Virus record (IMG/VR): IMGVR_UViG_3300030098_005108
Span: 1 to 59,532 of that record
Source: a virus
Direction: 5' to 3' (one strand)
Length of the DNA: 59,532 bases
The notes below the pieces were generated by a model. That model searched no databases. It worked only from the letters and a program-made list of their open reading frames with translations, and had not been told where the DNA came from. Shown here one piece after another: positions 4,893 to 31,617 of this stretch. Position numbers and translations under genes: made by a program. How positions within the stretch are numbered: the stretch's first letter is position 1; each line of letters opens with the position of its first letter.

Positions 4893-4903
4893 AATAAATA
4901 ATT

Positions 4904-6421: not shown

Positions 6422-6422
6422 A

Positions 6423-13352: not shown

Positions 13353-13362
13353 TAAATAGACT

Positions 13363-14562
13363 ATGAGTTATTCAGACATAATAGGAGCTACAAGATTATA
13401 TGGTGATTTATTAAATACTAATTTTGCTAATACTGCTAATAATTTAAGCAATGTTAAAATGGATTACGCTCCTGTTAATCCTTATTCATCTGGGGCTTAT
13501 ACACCAAGATCATCTAGAAATATTTATACAGGAGAAGGACGAGTTACACCAAATCCTGTTGCTGAAGCTAGTAATTTAGGTCTTAGTAAAATTGAAAAAG
13601 CAGGTCTTGGAGTAACACAAGGATTACAATATGCTGGTATAGCAAAATCATTATCTCCATATTTACAAAAAGCAGGAACAAGTTTAGGGGCTAAAGGAAC
13701 AATGGGTAGTTTAGCTCCTGCCGCTTTATTATATGGTGCAACAAGAAATCAAAATCCTTATGATTGGACAAGAGGAGAAAGTCTAGGAACTATCGGAAGC
13801 ACAATGTTGGCGGCTAAATCATTAGCTCCAATGCTTGGGTTAACTGCTGCTGCCGCTCCCGCTACTGTTGCTGCCGCACCTTTGTTAACACCTTTAACTA
13901 GTAGTATTGGCGCTGGTTCTGGCGCAAGTATATTAGGAATGCATCCAGGTCTTGCTTTAGGGGCTCTACTTTTAGGAGGAATGTTTTCTAAAAAAGGTAA
14001 GAAAGCTGCTAAAAAAAGAAGAATGGAGGTTAAGAAAAATATTGAAGAGCATCAGGAAGGAATTTATACCGATAGAGAAGCAGCCGTAAGAGAAGGCAGA
14101 GAAGATATGCAGTCTGCATTAACAAAACAAATGTACGACCAAAGACAGGGCAGATATGATAATCAGTATGGAGGGAATTATAGAGGATATAGTATGGATG
14201 AAGGCGGTAAGATGGATATAGTTGCTGAATTTACAGGAAACGAATTAATTGTAAATGATCAGAATATGGTAGAGCAAGGACTAGCTAGCGGAAATTATGC
14301 AATGGCTGCCACCCCTATTAGAAAAGCAATGAAGAATAAACAATTAACCCCAGGGCCTGAAACACATCAAGGCAATCCAATGCCTGTAGACTCTGAGGGC
14401 AATATATACGCGGGTGGAGGCGCGTTACCCTTTAAGGCTAATAAAGGTGCTGGTATATATGATCATGCTACAGATCAGTTTAAGTCAAATATGACTGATA
14501 AAGAAATAGCAATGGTTGCTAAAAAGAATATAAAAAAGTGGGAATCTAACGGAATGGCATAA
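13363..14562 (+). CDS. Internal cargo/ejection protein (399 aa)
   Basis: Residues about 110-215 form an Ala/Gly-rich, membrane-seeking stretch (LAAKSLAPMLGLTAAAAPATVAAA ... LALGALLLGGMF) flanked by a Lys/Arg block (KKGKKAAKKRRME). The C-terminal third (AEFTGNELIVNDQ ... GGGALPFKANKGAGIYDHATDQF) resembles cargo proteins stored in crAss-like heads. Its stop overlaps the next ATG (TAATG), coupling it to two further cargo-like genes and the RNA polymerase. It probably leaves the capsid during infection and helps form a channel through the envelope. No enzymatic motif seen. Confidence 0.65.
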   Translation: MSYSDIIGATRLYGDLLNTNFANTANNLSNVKMDYAPVNPYSSGAYTPRSSRNIYTGEGRVTPNPVAEASNLGLSKIEKAGLGVTQGLQYAGIAKSLSPYLQKAGTSLGAKGTMGSLAPAALLYGATRNQNPYDWTRGESLGTIGSTMLAAKSLAPMLGLTAAAAPATVAAAPLLTPLTSSIGAGSGASILGMHPGLALGALLLGGMFSKKGKKAAKKRRMEVKKNIEEHQEGIYTDREAAVREGREDMQSALTKQMYDQRQGRYDNQYGGNYRGYSMDEGGKMDIVAEFTGNELIVNDQNMVEQGLASGNYAMAATPIRKAMKNKQLTPGPETHQGNPMPVDSEGNIYAGGGALPFKANKGAGIYDHATDQFKSNMTDKEIAMVAKKNIKKWESNGMA

Positions 14563-16520
14563 TGGCACTACCAGGAAAAAATAAAATATCTATAAAAGAG
14601 GTTTATAATTATTTAATGACTAAACCTAAAATGACCAAGAATAAAGCCTTGGGAATTATTGCTAATATACAATCTGAATCACTTTTTTATTCCGATGCTG
14701 TTCAAATGGGAGACATGAAAGATGAAAATAGGGGTATAGGTCTTTTTCAACACACGTATAAAACAAGAAAAAAGGCGTTTTTAGAATCCGTGCCAGATTG
14801 GAAAACAAACTGGAAGGGGCAAATAGATTTTGCATTAGCAGAACAAGAAGCTCAAAATTATCTTAATAGTAGTTATAAAGATGAAGGTGCTGCTACTAAA
14901 GCTTTTATGAAAGAATTTGAAAGACCCAAAGATCAATCTTCAGAAGCAATACAAAAAAGAATAAATAATTTAAATATAATTAGTTTTGATGATGAGGAAA
15001 ATATTATAGTTTCTCAAAAAGCTAAAACTGATGAAGAAATAGAACAAGAAAAAGAACAAAAGGGGTATTATCCTCTTTCTGGAGAAGAGTCAATAGAAGA
15101 GTCAACATTAATACCTGAGATTAAAATAGAAGGAGAATCTAAAAGCACAAGTAAAAAGAAATATAGAAAAGATATTTTAGACAGAATATCTGGTAGAGAT
15201 GAATACTTAAAATACTTAGAAGACAATCAAGACGCTTTTAAAGAATTAAATAGTATAGAGAAAAATTTAAAGTCTTTTAGTAAAGGAACAAGAGAATATA
15301 ACGATCTTATTAATAGAAAGGCCGTACTAGAAAAAGAGCTTAATAAAAAAGAAAATGCACTTAAAGAAGATTTATATAAAAAAGAGTTAAATAATTATGT
15401 AAATAGAGAAAATAATGCAAGGGCTCAACTATCTAAATTGCAGAATGAAGCTAAGGCGTATGTAAATGCTGGAGAAGACGTGCCAGCAGATATAACAAGG
15501 GAAATAGAAGCGTCTAGAAAAGACATACTAGAGTCAGGCAATAGAGTAAAATTATTAACAAAACAAGGCTGGAGAGACTATGATATTAGCCCAGTACAAC
15601 AAGGGTATAATCAAAACATTTTACTTCCTGATGGCTCTATTGACATAGAGAAAAGTAAAACTACACCTGTTTTGCCTGACCCTTTGGGTGATGACAAGGG
15701 TGATGATATTGTTTATAATGTGGTTGACGAAAAGACCGATCAATCACAGATAGTAGAAACTCCAGCAGCGGAAGACACCACTGTTGCTGAAACAACTACA
15801 GAAGATCCTGTTACCACAGAAGATCCTGTTGCTACAGAAGAAGCGCCCTCTTTAACAAGGGCTCAAAAATTTGGACAAGCTGGAAGCGCTTTACTAAAAG
15901 GAGCTGGTGCCGTTTTAGATTCTATTGGTGGCCCTGGAGCTATTATCTCGTATATAATGGGTAAGAAAGGCTTAAAAGCCGCTATGAAAGAAATTCAACC
16001 TCAAGCCAGTGCTGAATTATCTCCAGCGTTTATGCAGCATTTAAGACAAACTAGAGAGTTAGCTAAAAAAGGATTTCATCCAGATCAAGCTAAAAAATTT
16101 AGAAAAGAATTAGATAAGTCTTATCAAATAGGATTAGAGAATGCAGTTAGAGGTTCTGGAGGTCAGAGAGCTAAATTCTTAGCGCAATCAGGCGTATTAG
16201 ACGCACAGCGCTCTTCCGCACTATTAGATTATGCAGCAAGAGATGAAGAGTTACAAGCCAAGAATCAAGAGAAATATGAAAAGATGATGCTCTTTAAAGA
16301 AAACTTTGACATACAGAGAACAGAAAAAGAAAGAGCTGAAGATATGGAAAGACAGATTGCTGACAAGAAAGCAGCAGCTGGATTTACATCAGCAGCATTT
16401 ACAAATTTATTATCAGGGTTTGGTAGAAGCTCTTTAGTTCCTAATCCAGCGCCTGGAACAACACAATTATATGATAGTATATCAAACTGGGGAAAAACAG
16501 AACAAACAACACAAGAATAA
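14562..16520 (+). CDS. Virion lysozyme-like cargo protein (652 aa)
   Basis: Residues 11-145 match the pattern of phage tail/virion lysozyme domains (Phage_lysozyme2 type): 'ALGIIANIQSES' with candidate catalytic Glu39, 'RGIGLFQ', then an aromatic region and 'AFMKEFERP'. Residues 200-320 are charged coiled coil. About 405-430 is a Thr/Glu/Pro linker with repeated TTEDPV. About 435-470 is a Gly/Ala-rich hydrophobic segment (SALLKGAGAVLDSIGGPGAII), and the rest is helical. Packaged with the tail or head proteins, it would open peptidoglycan at DNA entry. The ATG overlaps the preceding stop. Confidence 0.7.
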   Translation: MALPGKNKISIKEVYNYLMTKPKMTKNKALGIIANIQSESLFYSDAVQMGDMKDENRGIGLFQHTYKTRKKAFLESVPDWKTNWKGQIDFALAEQEAQNYLNSSYKDEGAATKAFMKEFERPKDQSSEAIQKRINNLNIISFDDEENIIVSQKAKTDEEIEQEKEQKGYYPLSGEESIEESTLIPEIKIEGESKSTSKKKYRKDILDRISGRDEYLKYLEDNQDAFKELNSIEKNLKSFSKGTREYNDLINRKAVLEKELNKKENALKEDLYKKELNNYVNRENNARAQLSKLQNEAKAYVNAGEDVPADITREIEASRKDILESGNRVKLLTKQGWRDYDISPVQQGYNQNILLPDGSIDIEKSKTTPVLPDPLGDDKGDDIVYNVVDEKTDQSQIVETPAAEDTTVAETTTEDPVTTEDPVATEEAPSLTRAQKFGQAGSALLKGAGAVLDSIGGPGAIISYIMGKKGLKAAMKEIQPQASAELSPAFMQHLRQTRELAKKGFHPDQAKKFRKELDKSYQIGLENAVRGSGGQRAKFLAQSGVLDAQRSSALLDYAARDEELQAKNQEKYEKMMLFKENFDIQRTEKERAEDMERQIADKKAAAGFTSAAFTNLLSGFGRSSLVPNPAPGTTQLYDSISNWGKTEQTTQE

Positions 16521-16523
16521 AAT

Positions 16524-18581
16524 ATGGCAGTAGACTACGGATTTTTTGAAGCGTTAACAGGGCCTATGCAAGCCGCAGGGCAGATACAAGCACAGCGCGA
16601 CCAAAGAAAAATGCAAGAGTTTCAAATGATGCAACAGCAGCGTCAAATGGAGCTTCAGCAATTAGAAAAACAAAAAGGGATACAAGACATGCTTGCTAGA
16701 TCACAAGAGGCAGCTAAGATGGACTTGTATACTAAAAACAATTTTCATAGACAAAAAGATATAGATGATTTTAGAAACTGGCATAATACTATGTCAGGAT
16801 GGGGAGACATACAAGAGGTGTTAAGACAACACGGATCTGTAGATAATGCAAGACTATATGGTAATTTAGATTATTTACTAGAAGAGTATAAAGCCAAGTT
16901 AAAAGATAATCCTGTATCAAGAAGAGTTAATAAAAATAAGGCAAGTTTAGAGTTGTATCATTCTTATGCTTTAGATAAAGACGGAAACGATAAATTTTTA
17001 ACTGAAGGAAGTAAAGAGAGATATAGACAATACAAAAAAGGAACAACAGATAATTTTATATTTTACGGAGGTAGACGAGATTATTTAAATGAATCAAAAA
17101 AACCTCGTAACACATCAGATGCTATAGATTTAGATGATGTATTGTATGATAATTATCATGCAGTATATGCTGATATGATAAATGATGCAAATGCAGAGCC
17201 TGGAACGCAATATACAGACGATCAAATGAAGGCATGGCTTGCGGGAGAGCTCAAGGTAACATCATCAGGAGGTACAGATTATTTTAATGGCCAGGCTATG
17301 TTTGGGGAAAAAGAAATTGACACTAACTTTGGTAGTGAGTTAAAAAGAATGACTAAAGAAACTAATAAAACTGGTATAGTTACTGGAAAACAATTCTTTG
17401 ATAATTTAAATTTAAAAGACGGAGAAACATTCCATAAATTATTTAATAAAACTGGTCTAGATAAAGCATGGAATAGATTTGGTGGTTATGACGGAACAAA
17501 ACAAACAAAAAGCTACGTAGGTACTAAAGCTATTTTCGGAAAAGGTAGGCAGGTTGCTTCAGGAGGGCAGGTGCTAATTGATAAAAATATAGAAGATAAA
17601 ATATCAGAAGTTTTATTTGGTAAATATCAAGATTCTGATATACCTAAATATGTATCTAAAAAACGTAAAATATATGATGTTGGAATGGTGGGTGTTTACG
17701 ATTCAAGAGGACACAAAATAACCTCTCAGGATACATCAGATATTATGCCAGGAGAGACAGGATTTGAAGATTGGGTAGGAGAAGATGAAAAGATGGACCT
17801 TAAGCTTAATGGATATTTTGTTGCTTTAAGGGGTTCGGGCGCAGACGGAAAATCTATTTTACTCACTGACGTTACAAACAAAGAAGATAGAGCAAAATTA
17901 GCAAAAGAATATAAAGACGTGGCGTTTCAGCCTGTTATTGTAGCAGAAATGGAAGACTTTGATTTATTGTCACATAATGATGTTTATTATAAAGAACTAG
18001 ACTTAGGAGATGCTAATGTATTGATGGCCTTAAACGAACAAATAAATCCAGAAAAATTAAACGAAGTGTTAGGGCAGTCGGCTACATATGAGGAGGAAAT
18101 GGCAAGAAATAAAATGATTGCCAAAAGACAAATGGCTTCTAACGCTAAATTACAAAGGCAGTTAAACCTACCAAATCCTGAGTCTGTTGAAGAGATAGTG
18201 TCTGGTTACGATCAAAGTTTAACAGTTGGGTTAGGATTATCTAGAGTTCCTGCAGTTAAAATTCAGCAAGCAGTTCCTATGATAATGTCAGATTTATATG
18301 TAGATTCGCAACAAAAAAGAAATTATCCATATGATTTTAATCCACAAGAAAAAGATCCTGCTAAAAAAATGATAGCGCAAACCCCAGGACAATATATGGC
18401 TTATAGCGCTAAAATGCTACAAGAAGGATTGATTAGCGGTAATCCCGCATATGAGGCTATGTTATCAGCAATAAAAACAGGGACATATGATGAATATAGT
18501 CAAAAGTTATATGATGAAAAATCTTATACTAATAGCAGAAAAATTACAAAAGGCATAATACAATATCAAAGAGGAAGATAA
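16524..18581 (+). CDS. Internal cargo protein with Gln-rich N-terminus (685 aa)
   Basis: Residues 15-70 form a Gln/Met-rich helix (QAQRDQRKMQEFQMMQQQRQ...), followed by helices and a mixed alpha/beta middle. There is no signal peptide, transmembrane segment or catalytic motif. It starts 3 bases after the lysozyme gene and its stop overlaps the start of the 4081-codon gene (TAATG). Co-translation with the virion RNA polymerase suggests co-packaging. Family not recognised; function inferred from context. Confidence 0.6.
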   Translation: MAVDYGFFEALTGPMQAAGQIQAQRDQRKMQEFQMMQQQRQMELQQLEKQKGIQDMLARSQEAAKMDLYTKNNFHRQKDIDDFRNWHNTMSGWGDIQEVLRQHGSVDNARLYGNLDYLLEEYKAKLKDNPVSRRVNKNKASLELYHSYALDKDGNDKFLTEGSKERYRQYKKGTTDNFIFYGGRRDYLNESKKPRNTSDAIDLDDVLYDNYHAVYADMINDANAEPGTQYTDDQMKAWLAGELKVTSSGGTDYFNGQAMFGEKEIDTNFGSELKRMTKETNKTGIVTGKQFFDNLNLKDGETFHKLFNKTGLDKAWNRFGGYDGTKQTKSYVGTKAIFGKGRQVASGGQVLIDKNIEDKISEVLFGKYQDSDIPKYVSKKRKIYDVGMVGVYDSRGHKITSQDTSDIMPGETGFEDWVGEDEKMDLKLNGYFVALRGSGADGKSILLTDVTNKEDRAKLAKEYKDVAFQPVIVAEMEDFDLLSHNDVYYKELDLGDANVLMALNEQINPEKLNEVLGQSATYEEEMARNKMIAKRQMASNAKLQRQLNLPNPESVEEIVSGYDQSLTVGLGLSRVPAVKIQQAVPMIMSDLYVDSQQKRNYPYDFNPQEKDPAKKMIAQTPGQYMAYSAKMLQEGLISGNPAYEAMLSAIKTGTYDEYSQKLYDEKSYTNSRKITKGIIQYQRGR

Positions 18582-21500
18582 TGGCAGATAATGATTACAC
18601 TTCAGGTCTTAATGATATATTAGGAAATTTATCTAAACCTACACCAATACCACAATCACCAGAACAAGATATTAAAAATCTTTATGAAGGAGAAATGCAA
18701 AGCACCCCATCAGGATTAGGTGGTTTAATAGAAAATTCAATACAATCAAATACTATAAATGATATTGCTTTTGATCAATACGCTCAAGGCGTGGCTGCAG
18801 GTCAAATGGGAGATGCAATGTATGCTGGTTTAGATGCAGAAAGATATGGTCCTGCGCCTCAACAACAAATAACAGATCCTAATGCAATGATAGGCTCTAC
18901 TGGACAAAGAGTTGCTAGAGGATTAAAAGCTGGTTGGGGTGATTTAGTTTCAGGAACAGGAGACACTATAGATTGGATTTCTGCCGCTATAAAACCAGGA
19001 GAAGGAGATTTAACAACAAGTGTTGGCTCTTATTTAAAAAAGGTGGGCACGGAGTATCAAAACGAAAATGCCTTAATATTAGCTGAAGACTTACAAGAGA
19101 TAGAGTGGCACGATATGTTTGATGGAGAATTTTGGTCTTCTAAAATGTCAAGACTTGTTCCTTATGCTTTATCTTTTATTTTACCTTCTGGAGTTGGGGC
19201 GGTCGGAGCAACAAGAATGTTAGGTCGCTTTGGCCCTACAATGCTTAAGTCTATGAAAGAAAGCGGTAAATTTGGTAGAATGAGTAGAGGGGGTGGAAAA
19301 GGAATAGGAGGAGTTGACATATCAAAAGCTGGAAGGGCAGGATTTAAAGGGCAGGCAGGAAGTGGAGTTCTAGGTCAAATAGGAATAGATCTAGGAAAAC
19401 AAGGTTATAAGCCGACTAAACTTCTTAGAAATACTACTGCATTTATAGGCGCTGGTACAGCAGGAAACCTTGCTGAAGGAGCTTATTTGTCAGGAGAGGC
19501 GTATCAAGAAATGATAAATGAAGTTGATGAAAATGGACAGCCAATGTTTACTCCTCAAGAAGCCGCTCATCACGCTGCTGGAGTTATGGTTGATAATGCC
19601 GCATGGATAGGTGTTGATGCAATGCAATATGCCCTTTTATTTGGGGGACTAGGAAGAGGTGTAATGGGCAGGCTTTTAAAAAGTACCGTAACTAAAAAAC
19701 CATTTGGGGAAAATATGAAAGCTCTTACAGGAATGCTTGCAAGAAGAGCTGCTGACACTCCAGTTGCAGCAACATATCTAAGTGCTGAAGCTCTTACAGA
19801 GGGATTTCAAGAGGTTTTTCAAGAATGGGCTAAATATGCAGAAATACAAGAGGCTAAAGGTGAGGACTGGGACTCATGGACAACATGGATGAAAGAAGCC
19901 CCTCTTGGAGAAAATGCCATGTTAAGAGATGTATTTTGGTCTTCTTTTGGTTTGGGGGCGGTAATGGGTGGAGCAAGAGGGTATTATGACGCCTATGCGG
20001 AAAGAAAAAAGAAACTGGATGATAAGATAGATGGATGGAACAATATAATTGAATTAGCCAAAGAAGGAGAGCGTAATCCGAGAATATATCAAAAAAAATA
20101 TGGAGAAGCTATAGACAATTCATTGGCTGATACTGTTTGGGACTATTATGGAGACGGCTCTGTTGCTATGGCGATGATAGATAATTATGTGAAAGACAAG
20201 CTAATGACAGAAGAATTAGCAGAAGAAAGAAAATCTCTCATAGAAAATATGGAGAAAATGTATGAAAAACATACAATAAATAGCGGATTAACAGAGGCTG
20301 GAGCAAAGCAGGCGTTTCGTGTAGAGGTGGTTTTGTCTGATTTAAATAGACAGGAAAGTGCATTAAAAGAAAGATATCAGGGATGGATAAAACAGCAAAA
20401 AGAAATATTTAAAAATGATAAAGACAAATTAAATAAAATATTAGAACAGGGAGAAATAGAGTTTAAGGGAGAATATAGAGCTCCAGTAGAAGACGAAGTG
20501 TCTTTAGAAACTATAAGATTCCAAAAAGATCAATTTAACCAAAGATTAGAAGATATATATGCAAGAAGATTAGATCAGGCTCCTGTGGCTAAATCTACTG
20601 GAAAAAGAGATGCTAGATTTAAAAAGGAGGGGTTAGATCAAGAGAAATATGAAAAATGGACACAGGAGGGAGAAAAACAAAAACAAGAAAGAGAAAAAGC
20701 AGAAGCAGAAGCTAAAGCTAAAGAAAAGACTGGTATATTTGAAACAGTTAAAGATTTAGGAGGTAAAGCCGTAGAAGGTGTTAAAAGTTTATTTGGTAAA
20801 GCAAAAGAAAGTCAAGCGTGGAAAGATGTAGCCGAAGCGACAAAAGGTATAGCAACAAAATCTTGGGCAGCCATGGGGGAGGCTTTAAAAAAGGGTGCAG
20901 AAAAAAGAACTGAATCTATGGCCAGAAGAATGGTTATAGAAGAAGGAAAAAAAAGAGTCAACAGAACAAATTATTCAAAAGCAATTGAAGAGATAAAAAA
21001 TGGCAAAATAAATTCTGCCAAGCAAATATTAAAGCAAGGTGTAATTGTAGACAAAAATGATATAGAAAACATTAAAGATCTTTATAATGTAGATGATGCT
21101 GGGGCAAACGCTATAATAAATAAAATATTAGATAATGATATAAAAAATATAGAGGCAAAACTAAAGGAAAACCCAAACTTAACAGGAGAAGAGCTTAAAG
21201 AATTAATTATAAAAGAGATGACTTCTGAAAAAGGAAAAGAAGCCATTAGTTCTATTCTTAATAAAGTAAAAGAAAGGTTTAAAAAGAAAGATACAAAAAA
21301 GACAGAAGAAGAAACAATTGATGTAGAATATGAAGATGTCACCGAAAAAACATTAACTGAAAAAGAATATTTAGAAAAATTAAAAAAAGATAGAAAAAAA
21401 GATGGCAGTATAGTTACAATTTTAGATGAGAATAGCTTTAAAACTGAAATTTTTAAAAAAGGTAAGCTTATAAAAAAAGAGAATATTGATGACATAAAAG

Positions 21501-24500
21501 TTGGTGATGCTATAATGAATAAACAAGGCACTTCTTTTGTGGTAATTGAAATCAAAGAAGATCCCACGGTTATGGGAGGTAAAATATTTAAGTCTCGCCA
21601 AGCCCTAATGACTCAAGAGCTGAAGATGAAACAGGGAATTTATCTTGCAGAAAGGGTGTCTGAAAAAATAACAAGTAAAAAGTCTCAAGCAGACGTAAAA
21701 AAAAAAGACCAACCAAGGGTAGTTCCTAAAACAGAGCAATATCAAAAAACAGAAGCAAGTTTAGAAAAAGGTGCTCGTCAGATAAAAAAAGCTGATATAC
21801 AAAAAGGCACAGGTCCTAATTACTTTATAAAAACTCCAGAAGGAGAAACTATTCAATATAGAGATTTTGACAATATTTCTGATAAATATGTGTTAGATGA
21901 AGGCGCTAATGTTGAATTGCGTTTAAGAAAACCAATTAAAGGTCAAGAAGGCGTTGTTGAAGTAGATGGCAAATTATATTTTCAATTTGATAATCTTTTA
22001 TATGAAACTGAAATAGAAGTTGTTATAAACGGTGAAGTTGTGGGTAAGGTGGCTCAACGAGATTATAAAGCCAAAGAGCCTACAAAAAAAGCCAAGAAAA
22101 AAGATACACGTAAGATAGATCAGCTAATAGGTGCTGTAAAAGAATCTAAAGAAAAAATTAAAAAGTATTTTACTAGAGCTCAAAAAGATATTCCTGATTA
22201 TAATCCAGAATCTTTAACTATAGATCCTTTGTATCGTCATGGTACTGGTATAGAGGCGAGAACAATAGTTGAGGATATAGTGCAAAAAAGATTTCCTGGA
22301 TCAAAAGGTTTTGTGGCGTATACAGCACTAACAGATGATTTTGGTCAAGAGGCATCTTCTTTGGCTATTGGCTCTACTATATTTATAAATGAAAACTCAG
22401 TAAAGCAATCAGATATAATTCACGAAGCTGGGCATATCTATTATAATTTAATGGGAGACACGCCATTAATGAAAAAAATTAAAAAGCTTTTACCTAAATC
22501 AGAGTTATATCAAAAAACTAAAAAAGACTATCCAGAACTTACTTTAATGAAGTTTAAAGATCTTAATATGACATTAGGTCTTATCTATAGAGAGATATTT
22601 AAAAATACAAACAAAGAATATGATTCTTTTCCAGATTTAGTTGATATTGCAAATAATATTGCTGCTGCTGAAAAAGCAGGAGATAGCGCTAGAGTTAATG
22701 ATTTATTTGTATCTCTTAGAACTCAGTTAAAAATTAATGGAGGTAAAGATGTAAGGGTGGATAGACAAAAACACTTGCTTGAAGAAACATTCACAAGAAC
22801 ATTAGAGTCATTCTCATACGGCACTGTAGATGCTGTTGTAAAGGGTTCTGCTGCTCAAAAGCAACTAGAAAAAGATTTAATACAATTCTATAAAGAAACT
22901 AAAAAATTAGCCACAGAAGAAGAGGCTAGAAAACTACTAGATCTTAGTGTAGACAATATAGCTTCGTTAGATTTAGAAGCCGCAATGAAGCATATACTAT
23001 TAGATTTTAATTCTGCCGATAGAACTGTGCCGTATATAATGAATTCTGCATACGGTCCCATTAATAAAGCTAATAAAAAAATATTAAGAAATACTGCTTC
23101 TTATTCAGCGGTATCTTTTTATATATCAGAAAATATACAGCTTGAAGATAACGAGCAAATTGTTAAAAATGTAATGCAGTTAATAGCTGACGACTCTGCA
23201 TTAACATTAGACAATAAAGATGTAAAAGATTTAGAACAATATATACATTCTATAATTATACAATTAAAAGATAATAAGAATCTTAAAGAGGCAGATAGGA
23301 TATTAGACGAGAGATTATCTGGAATTGGATTAGGAGGAAAACACAAAGAAGGAGAAAATGTAAAAGAAGCTTCTGAAGAGACTGATAGAGATAAAGAAAA
23401 GCTAAGAGTACTTCCTACAACTACAACTAATTTTATCAAAAAGATAGTAGAGTATTACAATAGAGATAAGGATGAAAAAAGCATGATAAGCAGCAAAAAG
23501 ATATTGTCTGCTATAATGTCTTTAGCAAAAGAAACAAAAAACAATCCTTATTCTTTTATTATTGAGATGAGAAAATCTTTGAATCCTAATATACAGAATA
23601 TGGTCATGACTATGGATCAAATTTATTCTCAGGTGGAAGGATTAACTAATCCCAAAAGATATACTAACGCTAAACTTGTAGAGTTGAAGGGGCCTATAGA
23701 AGGAATTAATATAGAGGTATTAGCTCATAATGTATTAAGCATAGGCGATAATGGGCAGAGAGCTTGGTATAGAAATTTGTCTACTAACATGACTATAGAA
23801 AAAAAGGTGTTAGATAGTATACTTAAAGGCCTAGAGGATAACACTCAAAAAGAAAAAGATATTGCAGAGGTATATAATAATTTATTTGACGATACAAACT
23901 ATCTGCAATCAATTAAAGATAAAAAGAAAGTATATAGAAGAAATGATATTATTGCAAGAAACAATTCTGCTGAAAAAATATTAAATATATTATTTGATTT
24001 AGAAAACGGAGAGTTTATAAATAAAGATGTTTTATTGAACAATCAGATAATGTTCAACGGAAAAAAGCAATTTATTCATAATATATTATTTGATCATACT
24101 ATACAAAAACAATTTACAACCGACAAAGGAAAGACTATAAAATTAAAAAAACCCAATATAATATTAAAGAATAAAGATATTTTTACAGTTTTTGATACAA
24201 GAAACGATCAGAAAAAATTCACCCATAAAGGGGTAAATGATTATCAAGCAAAAGGAGTTTTTCGTGATAAGCAAATAGAAATAAGGAATATAGTGACTCA
24301 AGGCCTAGTTATGTCTAGAGCAGAGAACTATATAACTATGATAGACAATGTAGAGCAAGATGGTGTTAGCGTTTTAAATAAAGATAATGGATTTTGGAGT
24401 AGAACAAAAAATGTTTTTGAAGTTGCTAATAGCGGTGTAAAGTTTGGTGAAAAAGATTTAATAAATCCAGAACATAATATTTTTGTAGCAATGGCTCAAC

Positions 24501-27500
24501 TGCAAGGGAAAGAAGAGGGTAAGAATTATTTAAATCCTTTTAATATTACTGTTCATTCTGGAATGATGAGATACTTTGAAAAAGACACTCATGGATTAAA
24601 AAATAAAGAAGGCCTCGCTAGAAAAGCAAATGATGTAAATCCTAACGAATTAACGGTGGGAGACTTCTTTATGTTTTTATCAAGATACAATGAAGGCAAA
24701 AGAAATAATGAAAAAACAATTTACTACGATCAGCCTATTGCTGTATTTGCCGATAAAAGCAGAAGGTATTATATACAAAGTATAATAGCTCATGATGCTA
24801 AAAGCAGAAAAGCTTTATTATCTAGAATAGCAAAAAATCCTGCTTATAAAAATAAAGATAAAAATAAATATAAGCTTGGCGATGAAGTGTTCCCTTATAA
24901 AATTAAGAATAATAGACTAGTAGGAGAAGACATGAATACTCTAATAAAAAATTGGAGAGATTATATGCAAAAAAATAGAGAATTATTTTTAAATAATAAA
25001 GATCTTAAAAAAGTTTTAGACTCTAAAAGGCAACCCACTAATGAGGTATTAGAAGCCTTTCTAACTTCTTATATAGCTAACAAGTTTATGGCTCAACAAT
25101 TATTTGTACATGATCATAGACAGTCTGATAATGAAATAGATTATATCAAGCGTGCTGCTGGTGCAATTGCTGGGCATACAAATTTTGACAGAAATACTTC
25201 TGTAGAATTTTTTGTAACTAATGATTATTATGTAGCAAAAGATGATAAAACTATTTTTACAGAAGAAGGGGCAAAGGTAGAATTTGGAGAAAATTGGAAG
25301 AAAGAGGTTGCTGTTGAAAATGATGCAATGGGATATGTACTTCCAAAACAAGCTGAATTAATAAGAGCTAAATATGGTGACTCTCAAAAAGTAGGAAGTG
25401 TATTTAAATTTGTATATCATTATACTGAGTTAGACGGCCCATTAAAAGACAGAACTACTTATATGAAGTTTGCTGTACACACTTTAACTAAAGAGATGGA
25501 GGATTCAAGCCCTTATTTAAAAAATCTTGGAGAGGCGTTAAGAGAAAGAACTAAAAATGTTAGAAAAGCATCAAAAGAAAATGGGAAGGGTGTTGGTAAT
25601 TTAATAATAGGAGCCTCTAAATCAGCAGCCAAATTATATGCAGGAGAACAAAGATTTATTCATGATATAACTTCTATAGATAATATGGAGGAAATGTTTG
25701 ATAAGCAAGACGAAATATATAAAGACGCTGAAGGATATAGAGGATTGTCTGGAGAAGGATTTGGTATACAGTTGGAACTTGACAAACAAACAGACGAAAG
25801 ATTCTTCCCTTCACAGTTATTTTATAATTTATTAAATAATATAACCGAAGAAAATAGAGAGAGCGTAGCAAGAATGCTTCAACTTAGAGAAAAAGTAATG
25901 AAGGCTAATAACGAAAAAAGAAATTCTTCCATTATAGAGGTAGGTGAAAATAAAAATATCTTTAAGGAAAGAGATTCTTTTAAGTCATCTGTTACAGCAG
26001 ATATATATGATATATTAGTAGAAAGCTCCTATGATAATTTACATCCTATGTATCCCTATTTAAATGCCCCACATAACGCTGTTGCTACAGGACGTATCAC
26101 TCATAAAGGAACTAAGATGTATACTAAAGGATCTATAGGTTATCAGTCCTCTAGTATAGGAATGGGGCTAAGATCATACCAAAAAGGATTATATAAAGGT
26201 CAAGCAAATGAATATATAAAAAATGAAGATATAGTAGTGTCTGAAGCTATAGTTCCTGGATACCTAAAAGATGACGGTGTTAAGGTGGGAGATCTGTTTA
26301 TCGGAACAAGAGTCCCTGCTCATGGTAAAGTAAGTAGTTCTGTTTTTATAGTAAAAGGTTTTCACAAACAAGTTGAAGGATCTCCTAATTCTAATGTAAC
26401 TATACCAGCATGGGTGAGTAAATTTTGGGGAGCTGATTTAGATGGAGATTCTATACATATGAATTTTAGATGGACTAATGAGGAGGTAGCCAAGCGAGAA
26501 TGGAAAAAAGATTCAAATGAATTTTTTGATAGATATGTGGCCTTAGTTAGTCAAAAAGAAAAAGAAAAAGAAATAAAAGCTGATATTGATTTTGTTGGTC
26601 CTGCTAAGAACGCTATTGAATTAAGAGATAAAATTTATGGGGTTCCAAAAACATCTAAAGAGTCTCAATTAACCCCAGAGGGTGACGGTAAAATGTTTGA
26701 AGATAACGTTCCAGCTAAACATTTAGTAGGTAGAATAGCCGCTCTAATGAGAACTTTTAATGTATTCTCTAATAGTCAAGATAGATTACCTGTAAAAATA
26801 TCTATTAAAAATAAAGAAGGGGTGGTAGAGCACGATAAGTTTTTTGATAATCCTTCTTTAGAAAACAATATAGGTAATTGGTATGGTGTAGCGCAATTAC
26901 TTAATATAGCATTAGATAATGCAAAATATCAATATGCTAGTCAATTAGGGATGAATCAAGAAAGTATATTCTCTTATGTTCTTTTAAGAAGATTAGGCTA
27001 TTCTTTAAATGATTTAACCCTTATGTTTAATGCGCCTTTCGTTAAAAAATATTTAGAATATAAAAGAGCTAAAAGCAAAAACTATATATCTAAAGATAGC
27101 GACATAATGGAAATGTTTGCAGATAAGAATAGCGAATTCAAAAAGAATGATTTTGCTGATTTTATGGAGGAGAATCAAATGATACCAGATATTAAATCTA
27201 TAATTAAAAATGAAAGAGTAGACATAGATATAAATAATATTACAAATAAAGACCAACAACAGAAAATTATAGAATTAATATATATATTGGATAATTATGA
27301 TAGTGTTTTAGTTAGTCCGTTTTCAAAAGCCTTTACTGTTCACCAAACTATTGAAAAAAATCCTTTAGAACTTAATAAAATACATAGCGCTATAGAAACG
27401 ATAATTAATAATACTATAAACGGACAGAGAAATACAATTTTAGGATGGGGAGGTGAGTATTTAAATTATGAATTAGAAAACAATACAATAAATAATCCAA

Positions 27501-30500
27501 TAGTAACACATGGGGTTGGGCTATTTAAAACTATGTTGGATAGGGCGGAACAAACCGATATAAGATATAGCCCTTATATTAGAAGAATATTAGAGGGTAA
27601 ATCTAAAGAAGTATTGAATAATTTAGGAGAATCTAAATCAGAAGTTATTAATCAGGTAATTGCAAATAATATAAGAAAGCAGTCTGGCTTAATAAATCGT
27701 GTTGTAAAAAAACCGATGTTAATTAAAGAGTTTAAAGAATTAAAAGAAAATACAAGAGAGAATTATTTTCTAGATAGTATAATACAGATTTCTGAAGACG
27801 AAAAAAATATTGTAATTAATAGGCAAACAATAACAGACTTTACTTCTTATAAAACTATTCAGCAAGCAAAAGATGCCTTTGCTGATCTATCTGAAACGTC
27901 ACAAGATTTAATTTTTGAGATAGAGTATCTTTTTAATTTATTTGGATATAAAGGAGGTGCTGGACAAGCCTCATCATTCGTTCCTTTCTTTGATGATAAA
28001 TATGTTGAAAGAATTAATGATGGCATGAACAAGGTTATTGAGCATAATAAAACAGCTTTTGCTGAACTTAATAATGAGGGTGTTTCACAAGAACTGCTTG
28101 ATGCTATTGAAGATGTACAAAAAAGAAAAGCAGGTCTTGACAGTTTAAGCGCTAAGAAAGAAAGAGATATAGCGTCTAAAGACAATAACAATATATATCC
28201 AAATCCTATAAAAAAACCTAAAAAGGTTATTACGGCTGACACATCTTACAATAATGATCATTTAGGAGGTGGAGTAGAATTTATGTCTTTTCCAAAGTGG
28301 GCTGCTGATAAAGGTATTGATATATCTAAAATAGAAGAAGACTCTAATACATTTAGAATACTTACGCAAAATTATAGTAAATATAAAGACCATTTAAGAT
28401 TAGTTAGAGAATTTGAAGCCACGCTAGAGAAAAAACCCTTAAGTAAATATACTATGGAGGGATTATATGATGAAGCGAGGAAGTTTAGAAAAATGGATAA
28501 TTCTGCCACTAAAGGCATAGCTTATACAATAGAAAAAGAAATAGGACAAAGAGCATTTCAAGAACAAGCTAAATATTTAAGAGACGTAGGGGCTAGTAAA
28601 GGATATGAATATAATATTCCTGGAGTAGACGGTGTAGCTCAAGATGATTTAACTAATTTTCAAGCATGGTTAGGCTCTAATAATATGACGTCTAAAAGGC
28701 CTGAGATACAGTATTTAATTAATGAAGCTCAAAAAGAATACAGAAAATATATGCGAAGCTTTAAAGAGCATAAAAATTTAATAGAAGAAAAAAATAATGC
28801 TTTAAAGAGATCAAAATTAAAAGGCCTTAGTATATTAGAAAGAGTAAGAAAAGGATTTGATTCTAATGCTCGTTATCAATATATATATGGCAATATAGCT
28901 ACTGTAGAAAATGGTAATGTTAGGTTATTTACTCCAGAAGAAATAGTAGAAAATGGAGTGGAATTAACGAGGCAAGAAGAAGAATACTATGCCACATATA
29001 AAGCTGTTGCTGAGATATTATTAGGATCAGAAGGCGGTGAGACTATAGTTCCTGGAATGCAAATGGGTACTTCTGAGAGTATGGCAAGAAGCGGCTTATT
29101 TGGTCTTTACAGCTCATCTATTGATTCTTATGACTATAATAGGGTTAAGGTTTATGGAATAGATGCAAATGGCGACAGAGCCTTAAAAACGTTTTATGAA
29201 TGGAAGTATGATGTTTATAAAGGAAGAACAGGAAAGCTTAAATTAAAATCTGGTAGAGAAATATTTGAATTAGACAAACTTAGAAGAAAAGCTAAAGAAC
29301 TTAAGGCTAAAGGTAAGCATGAAGATAATAGTAGGATTATACTGTCTGATGTAGAATATGATGCATTAGTAAATAATGGAGCAATGCTTAAGAGAATGAT
29401 TGGTTATGATAAAGTAAGCGATATTGATGCTGAGTTAATACAAGAATACGAAAGAAGAAAAGGGGTTAGAGCCCAAAACATTTCTTATGATATTAATACT
29501 ACATTATTAGAATTTACTAGAAGCCATATATTCCAACACGGTGAAGGCTTATATAAGCTGGAAGATGGACGGCCTGTAGAAAGAGAAGATCGTTTTACTG
29601 GTATGGGTAAAGTCGCAATACTTACAGATTCTATTATAGGATTTAATAAAAACTTAGATAATAAAAATGCTGTTAGATATTTAACAGGATGGTGGAAAGA
29701 AGGATTTTTAGAGAAGAAACAGCAAGTTGGTATATTTGGTAAGACAGGAGACAAGGTTATTGATACCTTTGTTAGACTAACATCTTTACGATTGCTTGGA
29801 TTTAATATGAGCATTGGTATTGGTAATACGCTTGCTGGTAAATATCAAGAATTACGTAAGCGTGGAGGAAAACAATTTATAAAAGGAGAAGCCAGGTACT
29901 GGAAAAATCTTTTTAGCTCAAGAGATATATTAAAAAAATATAGAATTATTGAATATAGTTTTGATGAATTTATGCACCTTTCTGAAAGAAAAGGAACTTG
30001 GGGCAAAATAGAAAGATGGTCTTATATGTTTATGGATGGCACAGAAAGCTATATTCAAGGTGCTGCTTTCTTGGGAGAATTAACAGATGAAGAATTTAGA
30101 ACAGGCGAGATATCAGAAGAAAGAGTAATGCATATTAATCATAAAATATCTACATTACACGGAGAAGGATATACTGCTTTAGACGCTAGTTTACTTTCTA
30201 TGTATTCTTATGGTAGAGCTTTATTACAGTTTAAGAAATGGTTTATTACTTTAATAGGAGATAGATTTAAAGCTGAAGACATAGATAGATTTGGAGATGT
30301 TAATATAGGTAGTTATAGAGCAAGCTCTGAATTTATAACAGATTTATTTAGAAAATATTTTGCTGGAGGAATAACTAAAAAAGAAATAATAGATATATAT
30401 AATAATTCTAGCGAAAAGAGAAAAAGAGAAATGCGTAATCATGTTGCTGGAATAGGTATAGGGGTTACGTTATTATCTTTAATTGCTATAATGGAAGATG

Positions 30501-30826
30501 ATGATGAGCCAGATACTAAAACTCTTAGAACGCTTAAAAAACTTTCTCATGATGTATTTATTACAACCGACCTAAGAAGGTTTGTAAATTACACTGCGGT
30601 TCCATCATCTTTTAGTACATTTAAGAATGCTAATAAAATGATCTATGAGGCCGTGAGAGACGATAAGGTTAAGCGTACTGGACCTTATGGTAAAGCGGGA
30701 TCATCACAAGCAATTAAAACTATGAGGTATGAAGTCTCTCCATTTGCAGAGGCTAAAAAAGATTTAGCTAATCTATTATATGAGGGTCCTTCTGAGAAAA
30801 AGGAAACTAGTTCTTTAATTAGATAA
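18581..30826 (+). CDS. Giant virion protein: zincin + DxDGD RNA polymerase (4081 aa)
   Basis: Residues 1281-1285 are HEAGH, a zincin metallopeptidase motif; Glu1401/1402 in HLLEETFTRTLE is a candidate third zinc ligand. At about 2574-2580 TRVPAHG and at 2619-2623 D-L-D-G-D (within FWGADLDGDSIHMNF) reproduce the R-x-P ... DxDGD layout of the double-psi barrel that holds catalytic Mg in beta'-type RNA polymerases. Upstream, HKGTKMYTKG (about 2508-2517) may be the lysine-bearing partner barrel. Residues 650-800 are Lys/Glu-rich coiled coil, and about 3740 begins a helical C-terminus. crAss-like phages inject such polymerases to transcribe early genes; theirs are usually shorter or split. It may be a polyprotein processed by its own zincin (inference). 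Confidence 0.85.
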   Translation: MADNDYTSGLNDILGNLSKPTPIPQSPEQDIKNLYEGEMQSTPSGLGGLIENSIQSNTINDIAFDQYAQGVAAGQMGDAMYAGLDAERYGPAPQQQITDPNAMIGSTGQRVARGLKAGWGDLVSGTGDTIDWISAAIKPGEGDLTTSVGSYLKKVGTEYQNENALILAEDLQEIEWHDMFDGEFWSSKMSRLVPYALSFILPSGVGAVGATRMLGRFGPTMLKSMKESGKFGRMSRGGGKGIGGVDISKAGRAGFKGQAGSGVLGQIGIDLGKQGYKPTKLLRNTTAFIGAGTAGNLAEGAYLSGEAYQEMINEVDENGQPMFTPQEAAHHAAGVMVDNAAWIGVDAMQYALLFGGLGRGVMGRLLKSTVTKKPFGENMKALTGMLARRAADTPVAATYLSAEALTEGFQEVFQEWAKYAEIQEAKGEDWDSWTTWMKEAPLGENAMLRDVFWSSFGLGAVMGGARGYYDAYAERKKKLDDKIDGWNNIIELAKEGERNPRIYQKKYGEAIDNSLADTVWDYYGDGSVAMAMIDNYVKDKLMTEELAEERKSLIENMEKMYEKHTINSGLTEAGAKQAFRVEVVLSDLNRQESALKERYQGWIKQQKEIFKNDKDKLNKILEQGEIEFKGEYRAPVEDEVSLETIRFQKDQFNQRLEDIYARRLDQAPVAKSTGKRDARFKKEGLDQEKYEKWTQEGEKQKQEREKAEAEAKAKEKTGIFETVKDLGGKAVEGVKSLFGKAKESQAWKDVAEATKGIATKSWAAMGEALKKGAEKRTESMARRMVIEEGKKRVNRTNYSKAIEEIKNGKINSAKQILKQGVIVDKNDIENIKDLYNVDDAGANAIINKILDNDIKNIEAKLKENPNLTGEELKELIIKEMTSEKGKEAISSILNKVKERFKKKDTKKTEEETIDVEYEDVTEKTLTEKEYLEKLKKDRKKDGSIVTILDENSFKTEIFKKGKLIKKENIDDIKVGDAIMNKQGTSFVVIEIKEDPTVMGGKIFKSRQALMTQELKMKQGIYLAERVSEKITSKKSQADVKKKDQPRVVPKTEQYQKTEASLEKGARQIKKADIQKGTGPNYFIKTPEGETIQYRDFDNISDKYVLDEGANVELRLRKPIKGQEGVVEVDGKLYFQFDNLLYETEIEVVINGEVVGKVAQRDYKAKEPTKKAKKKDTRKIDQLIGAVKESKEKIKKYFTRAQKDIPDYNPESLTIDPLYRHGTGIEARTIVEDIVQKRFPGSKGFVAYTALTDDFGQEASSLAIGSTIFINENSVKQSDIIHEAGHIYYNLMGDTPLMKKIKKLLPKSELYQKTKKDYPELTLMKFKDLNMTLGLIYREIFKNTNKEYDSFPDLVDIANNIAAAEKAGDSARVNDLFVSLRTQLKINGGKDVRVDRQKHLLEETFTRTLESFSYGTVDAVVKGSAAQKQLEKDLIQFYKETKKLATEEEARKLLDLSVDNIASLDLEAAMKHILLDFNSADRTVPYIMNSAYGPINKANKKILRNTASYSAVSFYISENIQLEDNEQIVKNVMQLIADDSALTLDNKDVKDLEQYIHSIIIQLKDNKNLKEADRILDERLSGIGLGGKHKEGENVKEASEETDRDKEKLRVLPTTTTNFIKKIVEYYNRDKDEKSMISSKKILSAIMSLAKETKNNPYSFIIEMRKSLNPNIQNMVMTMDQIYSQVEGLTNPKRYTNAKLVELKGPIEGINIEVLAHNVLSIGDNGQRAWYRNLSTNMTIEKKVLDSILKGLEDNTQKEKDIAEVYNNLFDDTNYLQSIKDKKKVYRRNDIIARNNSAEKILNILFDLENGEFINKDVLLNNQIMFNGKKQFIHNILFDHTIQKQFTTDKGKTIKLKKPNIILKNKDIFTVFDTRNDQKKFTHKGVNDYQAKGVFRDKQIEIRNIVTQGLVMSRAENYITMIDNVEQDGVSVLNKDNGFWSRTKNVFEVANSGVKFGEKDLINPEHNIFVAMAQLQGKEEGKNYLNPFNITVHSGMMRYFEKDTHGLKNKEGLARKANDVNPNELTVGDFFMFLSRYNEGKRNNEKTIYYDQPIAVFADKSRRYYIQSIIAHDAKSRKALLSRIAKNPAYKNKDKNKYKLGDEVFPYKIKNNRLVGEDMNTLIKNWRDYMQKNRELFLNNKDLKKVLDSKRQPTNEVLEAFLTSYIANKFMAQQLFVHDHRQSDNEIDYIKRAAGAIAGHTNFDRNTSVEFFVTNDYYVAKDDKTIFTEEGAKVEFGENWKKEVAVENDAMGYVLPKQAELIRAKYGDSQKVGSVFKFVYHYTELDGPLKDRTTYMKFAVHTLTKEMEDSSPYLKNLGEALRERTKNVRKASKENGKGVGNLIIGASKSAAKLYAGEQRFIHDITSIDNMEEMFDKQDEIYKDAEGYRGLSGEGFGIQLELDKQTDERFFPSQLFYNLLNNITEENRESVARMLQLREKVMKANNEKRNSSIIEVGENKNIFKERDSFKSSVTADIYDILVESSYDNLHPMYPYLNAPHNAVATGRITHKGTKMYTKGSIGYQSSSIGMGLRSYQKGLYKGQANEYIKNEDIVVSEAIVPGYLKDDGVKVGDLFIGTRVPAHGKVSSSVFIVKGFHKQVEGSPNSNVTIPAWVSKFWGADLDGDSIHMNFRWTNEEVAKREWKKDSNEFFDRYVALVSQKEKEKEIKADIDFVGPAKNAIELRDKIYGVPKTSKESQLTPEGDGKMFEDNVPAKHLVGRIAALMRTFNVFSNSQDRLPVKISIKNKEGVVEHDKFFDNPSLENNIGNWYGVAQLLNIALDNAKYQYASQLGMNQESIFSYVLLRRLGYSLNDLTLMFNAPFVKKYLEYKRAKSKNYISKDSDIMEMFADKNSEFKKNDFADFMEENQMIPDIKSIIKNERVDIDINNITNKDQQQKIIELIYILDNYDSVLVSPFSKAFTVHQTIEKNPLELNKIHSAIETIINNTINGQRNTILGWGGEYLNYELENNTINNPIVTHGVGLFKTMLDRAEQTDIRYSPYIRRILEGKSKEVLNNLGESKSEVINQVIANNIRKQSGLINRVVKKPMLIKEFKELKENTRENYFLDSIIQISEDEKNIVINRQTITDFTSYKTIQQAKDAFADLSETSQDLIFEIEYLFNLFGYKGGAGQASSFVPFFDDKYVERINDGMNKVIEHNKTAFAELNNEGVSQELLDAIEDVQKRKAGLDSLSAKKERDIASKDNNNIYPNPIKKPKKVITADTSYNNDHLGGGVEFMSFPKWAADKGIDISKIEEDSNTFRILTQNYSKYKDHLRLVREFEATLEKKPLSKYTMEGLYDEARKFRKMDNSATKGIAYTIEKEIGQRAFQEQAKYLRDVGASKGYEYNIPGVDGVAQDDLTNFQAWLGSNNMTSKRPEIQYLINEAQKEYRKYMRSFKEHKNLIEEKNNALKRSKLKGLSILERVRKGFDSNARYQYIYGNIATVENGNVRLFTPEEIVENGVELTRQEEEYYATYKAVAEILLGSEGGETIVPGMQMGTSESMARSGLFGLYSSSIDSYDYNRVKVYGIDANGDRALKTFYEWKYDVYKGRTGKLKLKSGREIFELDKLRRKAKELKAKGKHEDNSRIILSDVEYDALVNNGAMLKRMIGYDKVSDIDAELIQEYERRKGVRAQNISYDINTTLLEFTRSHIFQHGEGLYKLEDGRPVEREDRFTGMGKVAILTDSIIGFNKNLDNKNAVRYLTGWWKEGFLEKKQQVGIFGKTGDKVIDTFVRLTSLRLLGFNMSIGIGNTLAGKYQELRKRGGKQFIKGEARYWKNLFSSRDILKKYRIIEYSFDEFMHLSERKGTWGKIERWSYMFMDGTESYIQGAAFLGELTDEEFRTGEISEERVMHINHKISTLHGEGYTALDASLLSMYSYGRALLQFKKWFITLIGDRFKAEDIDRFGDVNIGSYRASSEFITDLFRKYFAGGITKKEIIDIYNNSSEKRKREMRNHVAGIGIGVTLLSLIAIMEDDDEPDTKTLRTLKKLSHDVFITTDLRRFVNYTAVPSSFSTFKNANKMIYEAVRDDKVKRTGPYGKAGSSQAIKTMRYEVSPFAEAKKDLANLLYEGPSEKKETSSLIR

Positions 30827-31257: not shown

Positions 31258-31617
31258 ATGGCAAACGTAGACGATTTAGTGAAGAAAGGTTTTGGGCAAC
31301 TAGGATCTGTATTCTCAGATGCCGATGGGGCAATTACACCTCCAACTAATAAAGTATTTGTAGCTATAACATTTTTATCAGATACTACCCTAGACTCTTC
31401 TGGAGGATTAGTTGCTGATACAAATTATAGAAGCTGTGAATTTATTGGCACAAATGCTGCTGCTCATGATGCCGCTTCAGCAACTGTAACTTCTGGTACG
31501 GGAGGTGATCAGGTAGATGTAAGTAACACTTTCCCTAAGGGTGTAACTATTTTTGGTAGATGGACATCTATCAATATAGGAACTCCAGGCAGTCTTATCG
31601 CATATATAGGAGAATAA
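31258..31617 (+). CDS. Fibre-associated protein, tandem copy 2 (119 aa)
   Basis: Paralogue of the preceding gene: 'NVDDLVKKGFGQLGSVFSDADGA' at the start and 'FPKGVTIFGRWTSINI' near the end, with a diverged middle. The stop overlaps the next ATG (TAATG), so it is coupled to the LamG-like protein and may assemble with it. The nucleotide sequences have drifted, so the duplication is not recent. Confidence 0.7.
   Translation: MANVDDLVKKGFGQLGSVFSDADGAITPPTNKVFVAITFLSDTTLDSSGGLVADTNYRSCEFIGTNAAAHDAASATVTSGTGGDQVDVSNTFPKGVTIFGRWTSINIGTPGSLIAYIGE

What the first reader, a model, noticed from the sequence alone, without database searches (positions are those of the whole stretch)
18581..30826. 4081-residue virion protein joining a zincin protease motif and an RNA polymerase active site
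One uninterrupted frame holds HEAGH (1281-1285, candidate third ligand Glu1401/1402) and, 1300 residues later, TRVPAHG...GADLDGDSIHMNF (D2619/D2621/D2623), the beta'-type double-psi barrel signature. crAss-like phages are known to inject a virion RNA polymerase with a DxDxD-type site. A single chain this long with an embedded metallopeptidase suggests a polyprotein matured by its own or another protease.
Basis: partly seen in the sequence, partly recalled or inferred. Interest (0 to 1): 0.85.

Follow-up and report, generated by a model that had tools for sequence, protein, structure and literature searches.

The report
Giant injected RNA polymerase of crAss-like phage
A marine crAss-like phage packs its injected RNA polymerase, a probable zinc-protease domain and two accessory modules into one 4,081-residue cysteine-free protein; close counterparts with the same enzyme pair are already known in other crAss-like phages, so this is a good new example rather than a new kind of thing.

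Summary
One uninterrupted frame (18581-30826, 4,081 aa) holds HEAGH at residue 1281 and DLDGD at 2619. In relatives with an uninterrupted frame the chain stays single (3,510-4,110 aa). HExxH and E1401/E1402 are present in 25 of 25 sequences covering them, and DxDGD in 26 of 26, down to about 30% identity. The polymerase half is firmly identified. Profile comparison matches crAss001 gp50 (E=1e-7) and Suoliviridae giants (E=4e-8), and the AlphaFold2 model's only significant PDB hit is 6VR4, the phi14:2 virion RNA polymerase (E=2e-13). The C-terminal module matches phi14:2 gp76 and cr128_1's gp49-like protein. The window also carries crAss ring and muzzle genes in the crAss order.

The zincin rests on invariant ligands and predicted helices. 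Its fold was not confirmed. The fusion itself is not new: Suoliviridae giants carry both motifs in one chain, p-crAssphage gp45 is annotated as fused to a zincin protease, and N4-type polymerases are always fused to such a domain. A self-maturing polyprotein is not supported.

A bonus is that the giant and the three ORFs before it contain no cysteine, the signature explained in N4-like phages by threading through the tail and periplasm.

The parts
18581..30826 (+). 4,081-aa single-chain cargo protein (virion RNA polymerase with zincin-like and accessory modules); contains no cysteine
18581..20680 (+). N-terminal module (residues 1-700) with glycine-rich hydrophobic helices (strongest 192-210); counterpart of the phi14:2 gp78 / crAss001 gp47 N-terminal part (weak match only)
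   Evidence: phi14:2 gp78, E=0.0025, prob 12; Suoliviridae giant, E=0.0035; hydropathy
20681..22120 (+). Lys/Glu-rich, length-variable linker (residues 701-1180; 211-525 aa in relatives with full coverage); holds a second zincin in relative L092
   Evidence: L092 insert matches phi14:2 gp76 zincin, BLASTP E=3e-13
22268..22840 (+). zincin-like metallopeptidase domain (about residues 1230-1420): strands before the HEAGH helix, Glu helix after
   Evidence: fold not confirmed
22421..22435 (+). HEAGH (1281-1285), zinc-binding/catalytic motif
   Evidence: invariant H, E, H in 25/25
22781..22786 (+). E1401/E1402, candidate third zinc ligand
   Evidence: invariant in 25/25; in predicted helix 268-282 of the model
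24458..27460 (+). two-barrel RNA polymerase core (residues 1960-2960)
   Evidence: hhalign to crAss001 gp50 E=1e-7, Suoliviridae profile E=3.6e-8; Foldseek to 6VR4 E=1.9e-13
26435..26449 (+). DLDGD (2619-2623), catalytic Mg2+ site; aligns in register with DFDVD of crAss001 gp50
29678..30823 (+). C-terminal alpha-helical module (residues ~3700-4081) with predicted hydrophobic helix 3953-3971; counterpart of the phi14:2 gp76 / crAss001 gp49 C-terminal part
   Evidence: hhalign E=7e-8 to phi14:2 gp76, 6e-6 to cr128 gp49 homologue; hydropathy
16524..18581 (+). 685-aa cargo-position ORF, no cysteine
14562..16520 (+). 652-aa cargo-position ORF with phage tail lysozyme domain (PF18013, E=3e-17), no cysteine
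13363..14562 (+). 399-aa cargo-position ORF, two hydrophobic helices, weak tape-measure match, no cysteine
6423..13352 (+). muzzle protein (crAss_MUZ), 2,309 aa; identifies the phage as crAss-like
   Evidence: E=1.2e-134
4904..6421 (+). tail ring protein 1 (CrAss_Ring_1) with DUF642 insert
2918..4009 (+). probable tail ring protein 2 (CrAss_Ring_2, below the curated cut-off)
   Evidence: E=3.4e-5

Best explanation
The ORF is the whole transcription block of a marine crAss-like phage, fused into one polypeptide: N-terminal membrane-interacting module, flexible linker, zincin-like metallopeptidase, two-barrel DNA-dependent RNA polymerase, and C-terminal helical module. It is packaged in the head as cargo, unfolds to pass through the tail and cell envelope ahead of the DNA, refolds in the host, and transcribes the early genes using the DLDGD Mg2+ site. 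The N- and C-terminal modules most likely hold it at the inner membrane next to the entering DNA. The peptidase most likely acts during or after ejection, on a host or envelope substrate or on its own linker, and not as an obligatory maturation protease of a polyprotein. Shown here: polymerase homology and fold, motif conservation, single-chain state of the gene, gene order, absence of cysteine. Inferred: packaging, ejection, early transcription, membrane anchoring. Most speculative: peptidase activity and its substrate.
For: Polymerase core: hhalign to crAss001 gp50 E=1e-7 with DLDGD in register with DFDVD; Suoliviridae profile E=3.6e-8 over 616 columns, p-crAssphage gp44 E=5.7e-7; AlphaFold2 model matches 6VR4, the solved phi14:2 virion polymerase, E=1.9e-13, with aspartate decarboxylase double-psi barrels among the weak hits. 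C-terminal module homologous to phi14:2 gp76 (E=7e-8) and cr128 gp49 homologue. Those crAss proteins are found in virions (phi14:2 gp76-78 annotated from MS; crAss001 gp47/49/50 by MS, PMC10172136). Gene order ring1-muzzle-cargo ORFs-RNAP block matches crAss001 and cr113_1. No cysteine in 5,817 consecutive residues; across 17 related loci 1 Cys in 66,177 giant residues against 1.83% in other ORFs. N4, T7, P22 and P23-45 ejected proteins show the same (1 Cys in 12,866 residues), and this is the published explanation for N4-like polymerases (PMC3715699, PMC3915230).
Against: No experiment exists for this phage. The polymerase model has modest confidence (pLDDT 68.8) and TM 0.50, so fine active-site geometry is unproven. 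The N-terminal match is weak. The zincin fold has no structural confirmation, and its sequence does not align detectably with other crAss zincins. The DLDGD motif differs from the DFDxD of the reference crAss polymerases looked at (G at the fourth position, as in cellular enzymes).
Confidence: 0.85

Rival explanations
1. One reading: a polyprotein precursor cut into separate peptidase, polymerase and accessory proteins by its own zincin or another protease during virion assembly.
For: Other crAss phages encode the same modules as two or three separate proteins; a length-variable Lys/Glu-rich linker lies between the N module and the zincin; phage P1 DdrB with a similar domain is cut before packaging (PMC5512222).
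Against: In crAss001 and p-crAssphage the zincin is on a different polypeptide from the polymerase, so cis-cleavage is not needed for function. It lies after the polymerase in phi14:2 and Fpv2, so its position is not fixed. N4 virion polymerase with such a domain is packaged uncut (PMC5512222). No frame break or gene boundary separates the modules in relatives.
Confidence: 0.15
2. The peptidase is an injected effector that cuts host or envelope proteins (for example to open the inner membrane or disable a defence), and the fusion is simply a way to deliver it.
For: Zinc ligands kept in every relative. Peptidases are present in crAss cargo whether or not fused to the polymerase. One relative, L092, carries two different zincins. 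Proposed as an option for polyvalent proteins (PMC5512222).
Against: No substrate is known and no toxin-like diversification around the catalytic residues was seen; activity itself is untested.
Confidence: 0.35
3. HEAGH is a structural or inactive remnant, not an active peptidase.
For: No Pfam, PDB or BFVD match.
Against: Both histidines, the catalytic glutamate and both candidate third-ligand glutamates are invariant at ~30% overall identity; the predicted layout (strands, HExxH helix, later Glu helix) fits a zincin.
Confidence: 0.12

Closest known systems
phi14:2 virion RNA polymerase (PDB 6VR4; AGO48955, 2,180 aa) and the neighbouring gp78/gp76
   Same: Polymerase fold (Foldseek E=1.9e-13), C-terminal module of gp76 (E=7e-8), module order polymerase then C-terminal module, near absence of cysteine
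   Different: Three separate genes; zincin in gp76 after the polymerase; active site DFDID instead of DLDGD
Giant single-chain polymerases of Suoliviridae (cr113_1 4,328 aa, cr50_1 4,774, cr118_1 4,946, cr55_1 4,551, cr10_1 4,460, cr130_1 5,801)
   Same: N module, HExxH, then polymerase in one chain at the same genomic place; 1,444-1,587 residues between the two motifs against 1,338 here
   Different: In cr118_1 the C-terminal module is in the next gene (E=1e-4), not shown for the others; zincin sequences do not align; active site DFDxD without the glycine; cr113_1 and cr130_1 have recoded TAG
p-crAssphage (Carjivirus communis BK010471) gp44 and gp45
   Same: gp45 annotated 'RNAP associated protein fused to zincin protease', gp44 polymerase fused to another RNAP subunit, with a weak match of its C-terminal part to the C module here (E=0.002)
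   Different: Split between zincin and polymerase into two genes
N4-type (Schitoviridae) virion RNA polymerase, 3,500 aa
   Same: Single giant ejected chain with a polymerase and a HExxH domain (2228 in N4), no cysteine (PMC5512222, PMC12633501)
   Different: Polymerase is of the unrelated T7 type; zincin lies after it; no detectable homology
Thermus phage P23-45 gp96 (5,002 aa, tape measure fused to virion RNA polymerase)
   Same: DxDGD two-barrel polymerase, metallopeptidase and membrane domains in one virion chain (PMC10770324), no cysteine
   Different: Polymerase at the N-terminus of a tail tape measure protein in a long-tailed phage; only a weak local match around DxDGD (E=0.006); no HExxH found, so its peptidase is of another motif type

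Membership tests
crAss-type virion RNA polymerase (phi14:2 gp66/6VR4 family) | Metal-binding DxDxD motif in the beta'-like barrel | tested here: met
   DLDGD 2619-2623, invariant in 26/26, in register with DFDVD of crAss001 gp50
crAss-type virion RNA polymerase (phi14:2 gp66/6VR4 family) | Sequence homology to crAss polymerases beyond the motif | tested here: met
   hhalign E=1e-7 over 470 columns; E=3.6e-8 over 616 columns
crAss-type virion RNA polymerase (phi14:2 gp66/6VR4 family) | Two double-psi beta barrels in one chain, 6VR4-like fold | tested here: met
   Foldseek to 6VR4 E=1.9e-13, prob 1.00, only significant PDB hit; model pLDDT 68.8, barrels not inspected individually
crAss-type virion RNA polymerase (phi14:2 gp66/6VR4 family) | Gene lies in the cargo/transcription block next to muzzle of a crAss-like phage | tested here: met
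crAss-type virion RNA polymerase (phi14:2 gp66/6VR4 family) | Packaged in the virion and injected | not testable with these tools
   Indirect only: cysteine-free like ejected proteins
crAss-type virion RNA polymerase (phi14:2 gp66/6VR4 family) | DNA-dependent RNA synthesis | not testable with these tools
   Needs in vitro transcription
Zincin-like metallopeptidase (polyvalent-protein MPTase type) | HExxH motif on a helix | tested here: met
   HEAGH 1281-1285 in predicted helix 150-161 of the model, invariant in 25/25
Zincin-like metallopeptidase (polyvalent-protein MPTase type) | Glutamate ligand on a following helix | tested here: met
   E1401/E1402 invariant, in predicted helix 268-282
Zincin-like metallopeptidase (polyvalent-protein MPTase type) | Zincin fold or profile match to a known zincin | tested here: inconclusive
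   No significant match in Pfam, PDB or BFVD; no alignment with Suoliviridae zincins
Zincin-like metallopeptidase (polyvalent-protein MPTase type) | Zinc binding and proteolysis | not testable with these tools
   Needs biochemistry
N4-type virion RNA polymerase | T7-type polymerase domain | tested here: not met
   No region aligns with N4 gp50; polymerase is two-barrel type
Self-processed polyprotein | Separate mature products from one chain | not testable with these tools
   Needs virion proteomics; comparative evidence is against it

The most novel reading that the evidence does not exclude
In this marine lineage the lineage-specific zincin, which does not align with the zincins of other crAss phages and coexists with a standard crAss zincin in one relative (L092), is a distinct injected protease with its own host target, delivered by fusion to the polymerase in a fully merged transcription block.
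Probability: 0.2. Interest if true: 0.6.

Novelty: new member of a known kind. Interest (0 to 1): 0.38.

Why it matters
It extends the giant virion polymerases of crAss-like phages to a marine lineage where all the block's modules, spread over two or three genes in other crAss phages, sit in one chain. That makes domain order and boundaries readable from a single sequence. It also shows that a HExxH domain accompanies virion-injected polymerases in two unrelated polymerase types (crAss and N4), with a metallopeptidase also annotated in P23-45 gp96. That points to a shared job in delivery that nobody has assigned. The near absence of cysteine in crAss cargo gives a simple sequence test for ejected proteins.

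Tried and rejected
Single-sequence and profile searches against PDB by sequence gave nothing; only the fold comparison reached 6VR4. Pfam and PHROGs have no model for the giant. tblastn against 50,697 phage records gave no hit for either half, so named relatives were reached through the muzzle and through cr113_1's polymerase. Zincin: Foldseek in PDB and BFVD and hhalign against other crAss zincins, N4 and P23-45 were all negative. I therefore keep 'zincin' at motif level. I considered that the window frame might be a fusion artefact of assembly: rejected, because independent contigs from many metagenomes show the same single frame. I considered the YonO-like label: rejected in favour of crAss 6VR4-type. 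A genome-contig scan found no relative in cellular genomes, so no host could be linked. An early idea that absence of cysteine was a new observation was corrected by the literature: it is known for N4-like polymerases; I found no report of it for crAss phages in the library searched.

Full report
What was checked. The frame 18581-30826 is open for 4,081 codons from an ATG. HEAGH lies at residues 1281-1285 and DLDGD at 2619-2623, as stated. The window is the whole of a 59.5-kb linear IMG/VR record, so it is probably a partial genome.

Which phage. The 2,309-aa ORF at 6423-13352 is a crAss muzzle protein (Pfam crAss_MUZ, E=1e-134). The ORF before it matches crAss tail ring protein 1, and 2918-4009 weakly matches ring protein 2. 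After the muzzle come ORFs of 399, 652 (phage lysozyme domain) and 685 aa, then the giant. crAss001 and cr113_1 have the same order: muzzle, two cargo proteins, polymerase block. Named phages are only about 25% identical in the muzzle, so this is a divergent crAss-like lineage. 'Marine' is inferred from the IMG metagenome series of its relatives, not from sample records, which the tools do not show. Its family could not be set because no terminase, portal or capsid gene was identified in the window.

Relatives. Two scans of IMG/VR gave 18 and 30 loci encoding the polymerase region at 31-75% identity. The giant is one frame in nearly all complete cases (3,510-4,110 aa); one contig (L017/L104) has a frame break inside the polymerase core that looks like a small deletion or assembly error. 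In a 26-sequence alignment the two histidines and glutamate of HExxH and both E1401 and E1402 are invariant where covered (25/25). The three aspartates and glycine of DLDGD are invariant (26/26). The two motifs are 1,201-1,368 residues apart.

The polymerase. Residues 2150-2950 align to crAss001 gp50 (hhalign E=1e-7), with IGTRVPAHGK...GADLDGDSIHM in register with IGYRVPTEDK...GSDFDVDKLYI. They also align to p-crAssphage gp44 (E=5.7e-7) and to a six-member Suoliviridae profile (E=3.6e-8). phi14:2 gp77 of KC821624 is identical to the solved virion polymerase 6VR4. An AlphaFold2 model of residues 1960-2960 (pLDDT 68.8) has 6VR4 as its only significant PDB match (E=1.9e-13, probability 1.00). Aspartate decarboxylase double-psi barrels and a maize RDR2 appear among the non-significant hits. 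The polymerase claim is therefore well supported. One difference is the glycine at the fourth motif position (DLDGD, DMDGD in distant relatives), where the reference crAss polymerases read here have V or I.

Other modules. Residues ~3740-3966 match the C-terminal part of phi14:2 gp76 (E=7e-8) and the crAss001-type gp49 of cr128_1 (E=6e-6), including a hydrophobic helix. The N-terminal module has only weak matches to phi14:2 gp78 (E=0.0025) and Suoliviridae (E=0.0035). The likeliest reading is that the window protein is the co-linear fusion of what phi14:2 encodes as gp78, gp77 and gp76. In the named records compared, these modules sit in two or three genes.

The zincin-like domain. In the model of residues 1130-1560 the core has pLDDT 71-92, with two short strands, a helix carrying HEAGH and a later helix carrying E1401/E1402. 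That is the zincin layout described for polyvalent proteins, where inserts between the two helices vary (PMC5512222). However, neither PDB, BFVD, Pfam nor the zincins of Suoliviridae, N4 or P23-45 gave a significant match. I rate a zincin as probable, not shown. Relative L092 carries a second HExxH in the linker, and this one is clearly homologous to the zincin of phi14:2 gp76 (E=3e-13). The linker therefore accepts known crAss zincins, and the lineage-specific domain is additional.

Is the combination new? No. Six Suoliviridae giants contain HExxH followed by DFDxD in one chain. p-crAssphage gp45 is annotated as fused to a zincin protease and gp44 as a polymerase fusion. A review describes crAss polymerase genes of up to ~6,000 aa as a hallmark (PMC10136315). 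[quoted passage not shown] P23-45 gp96 joins a polymerase, a metallopeptidase and membrane domains (PMC10770324).

Polyprotein? The zincin is on a different chain from the polymerase in crAss001, p-crAssphage and phi14:2, and it follows the polymerase in Fpv2. N4 polymerase is packaged unprocessed (PMC5512222). Cleavage in cis is therefore not needed for the system to work, though it is not excluded here.

Cysteine. The giant and the three ORFs before it have no cysteine in 5,817 residues. In 17 related loci the giants have 1 in 66,177, against 1.83% in the other ORFs (the comparison set is mechanical ORFs and may include spurious ones). crAss001 gp47/49/50 have 5 in 6,102 and phi14:2 gp76-78 have 4 in 5,398, against 1.15% in phi14:2 replication genes. 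Ejected proteins of N4, T7, P22 and P23-45 have 1 in 12,866. For N4-like polymerases this was noted and explained by passage through the tail and the oxidising periplasm (PMC3715699, PMC3915230, PMC2784036). It is independent, indirect support that the window protein is ejected.

Mechanism. Packaged with the DNA, partly unfolded through the tail as proposed for crAss cargo (PMC10172136), refolded inside, then early transcription. The membrane-like segments at both ends suggest that the chain stays at the entry site. The peptidase's substrate is open; a role during or after delivery fits its mobility between chains better than obligatory self-maturation. None of these steps was tested in this phage.

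Noticed in passing
13363-30826; loci L084-L112; L120-L123: Four consecutive cargo ORFs, 5,817 residues, contain no cysteine; giants of the lineage have 1 Cys in 66,177 residues. Same in crAss001, phi14:2, N4, T7, P22 and P23-45 ejected proteins. Known for N4-like polymerases, apparently not noted for crAss phages.
   Followed up: partly
L092, giant protein residues ~950-1150 (locus 4124-16453): A second HExxH domain in the linker, homologous to the zincin of phi14:2 gp76 (BLASTP E=3e-13), next to the lineage-specific one.
   Followed up: partly
26435-26449: Active-site motif DLDGD carries the glycine typical of cellular and RNA-interference polymerases, while the reference crAss polymerases read here have DFDVD, DFDID or DYDID.
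   Followed up: no
37510-40143: 877-aa ORF with 52 cysteines (5.9%) and no PHROGs or Pfam match; a striking contrast to the cysteine-free block.
   Followed up: no
33008-34069: 353-aa ORF with DUF285 repeats, and a neighbouring ORF (31560-32615) with a Laminin_G_3 lectin domain; candidate host-recognition proteins.
   Followed up: no
about 46.8-47.8 kb: Switch of coding strand; DnaB helicase, PDDEXK nuclease and DUF932 protein are on the minus strand to the right.
   Followed up: no
L104, around 2100-2210: Frame break inside the polymerase core of one relative (contig IMGVR_UViG_3300030012_002541), probably a small deletion or assembly error.
   Followed up: partly
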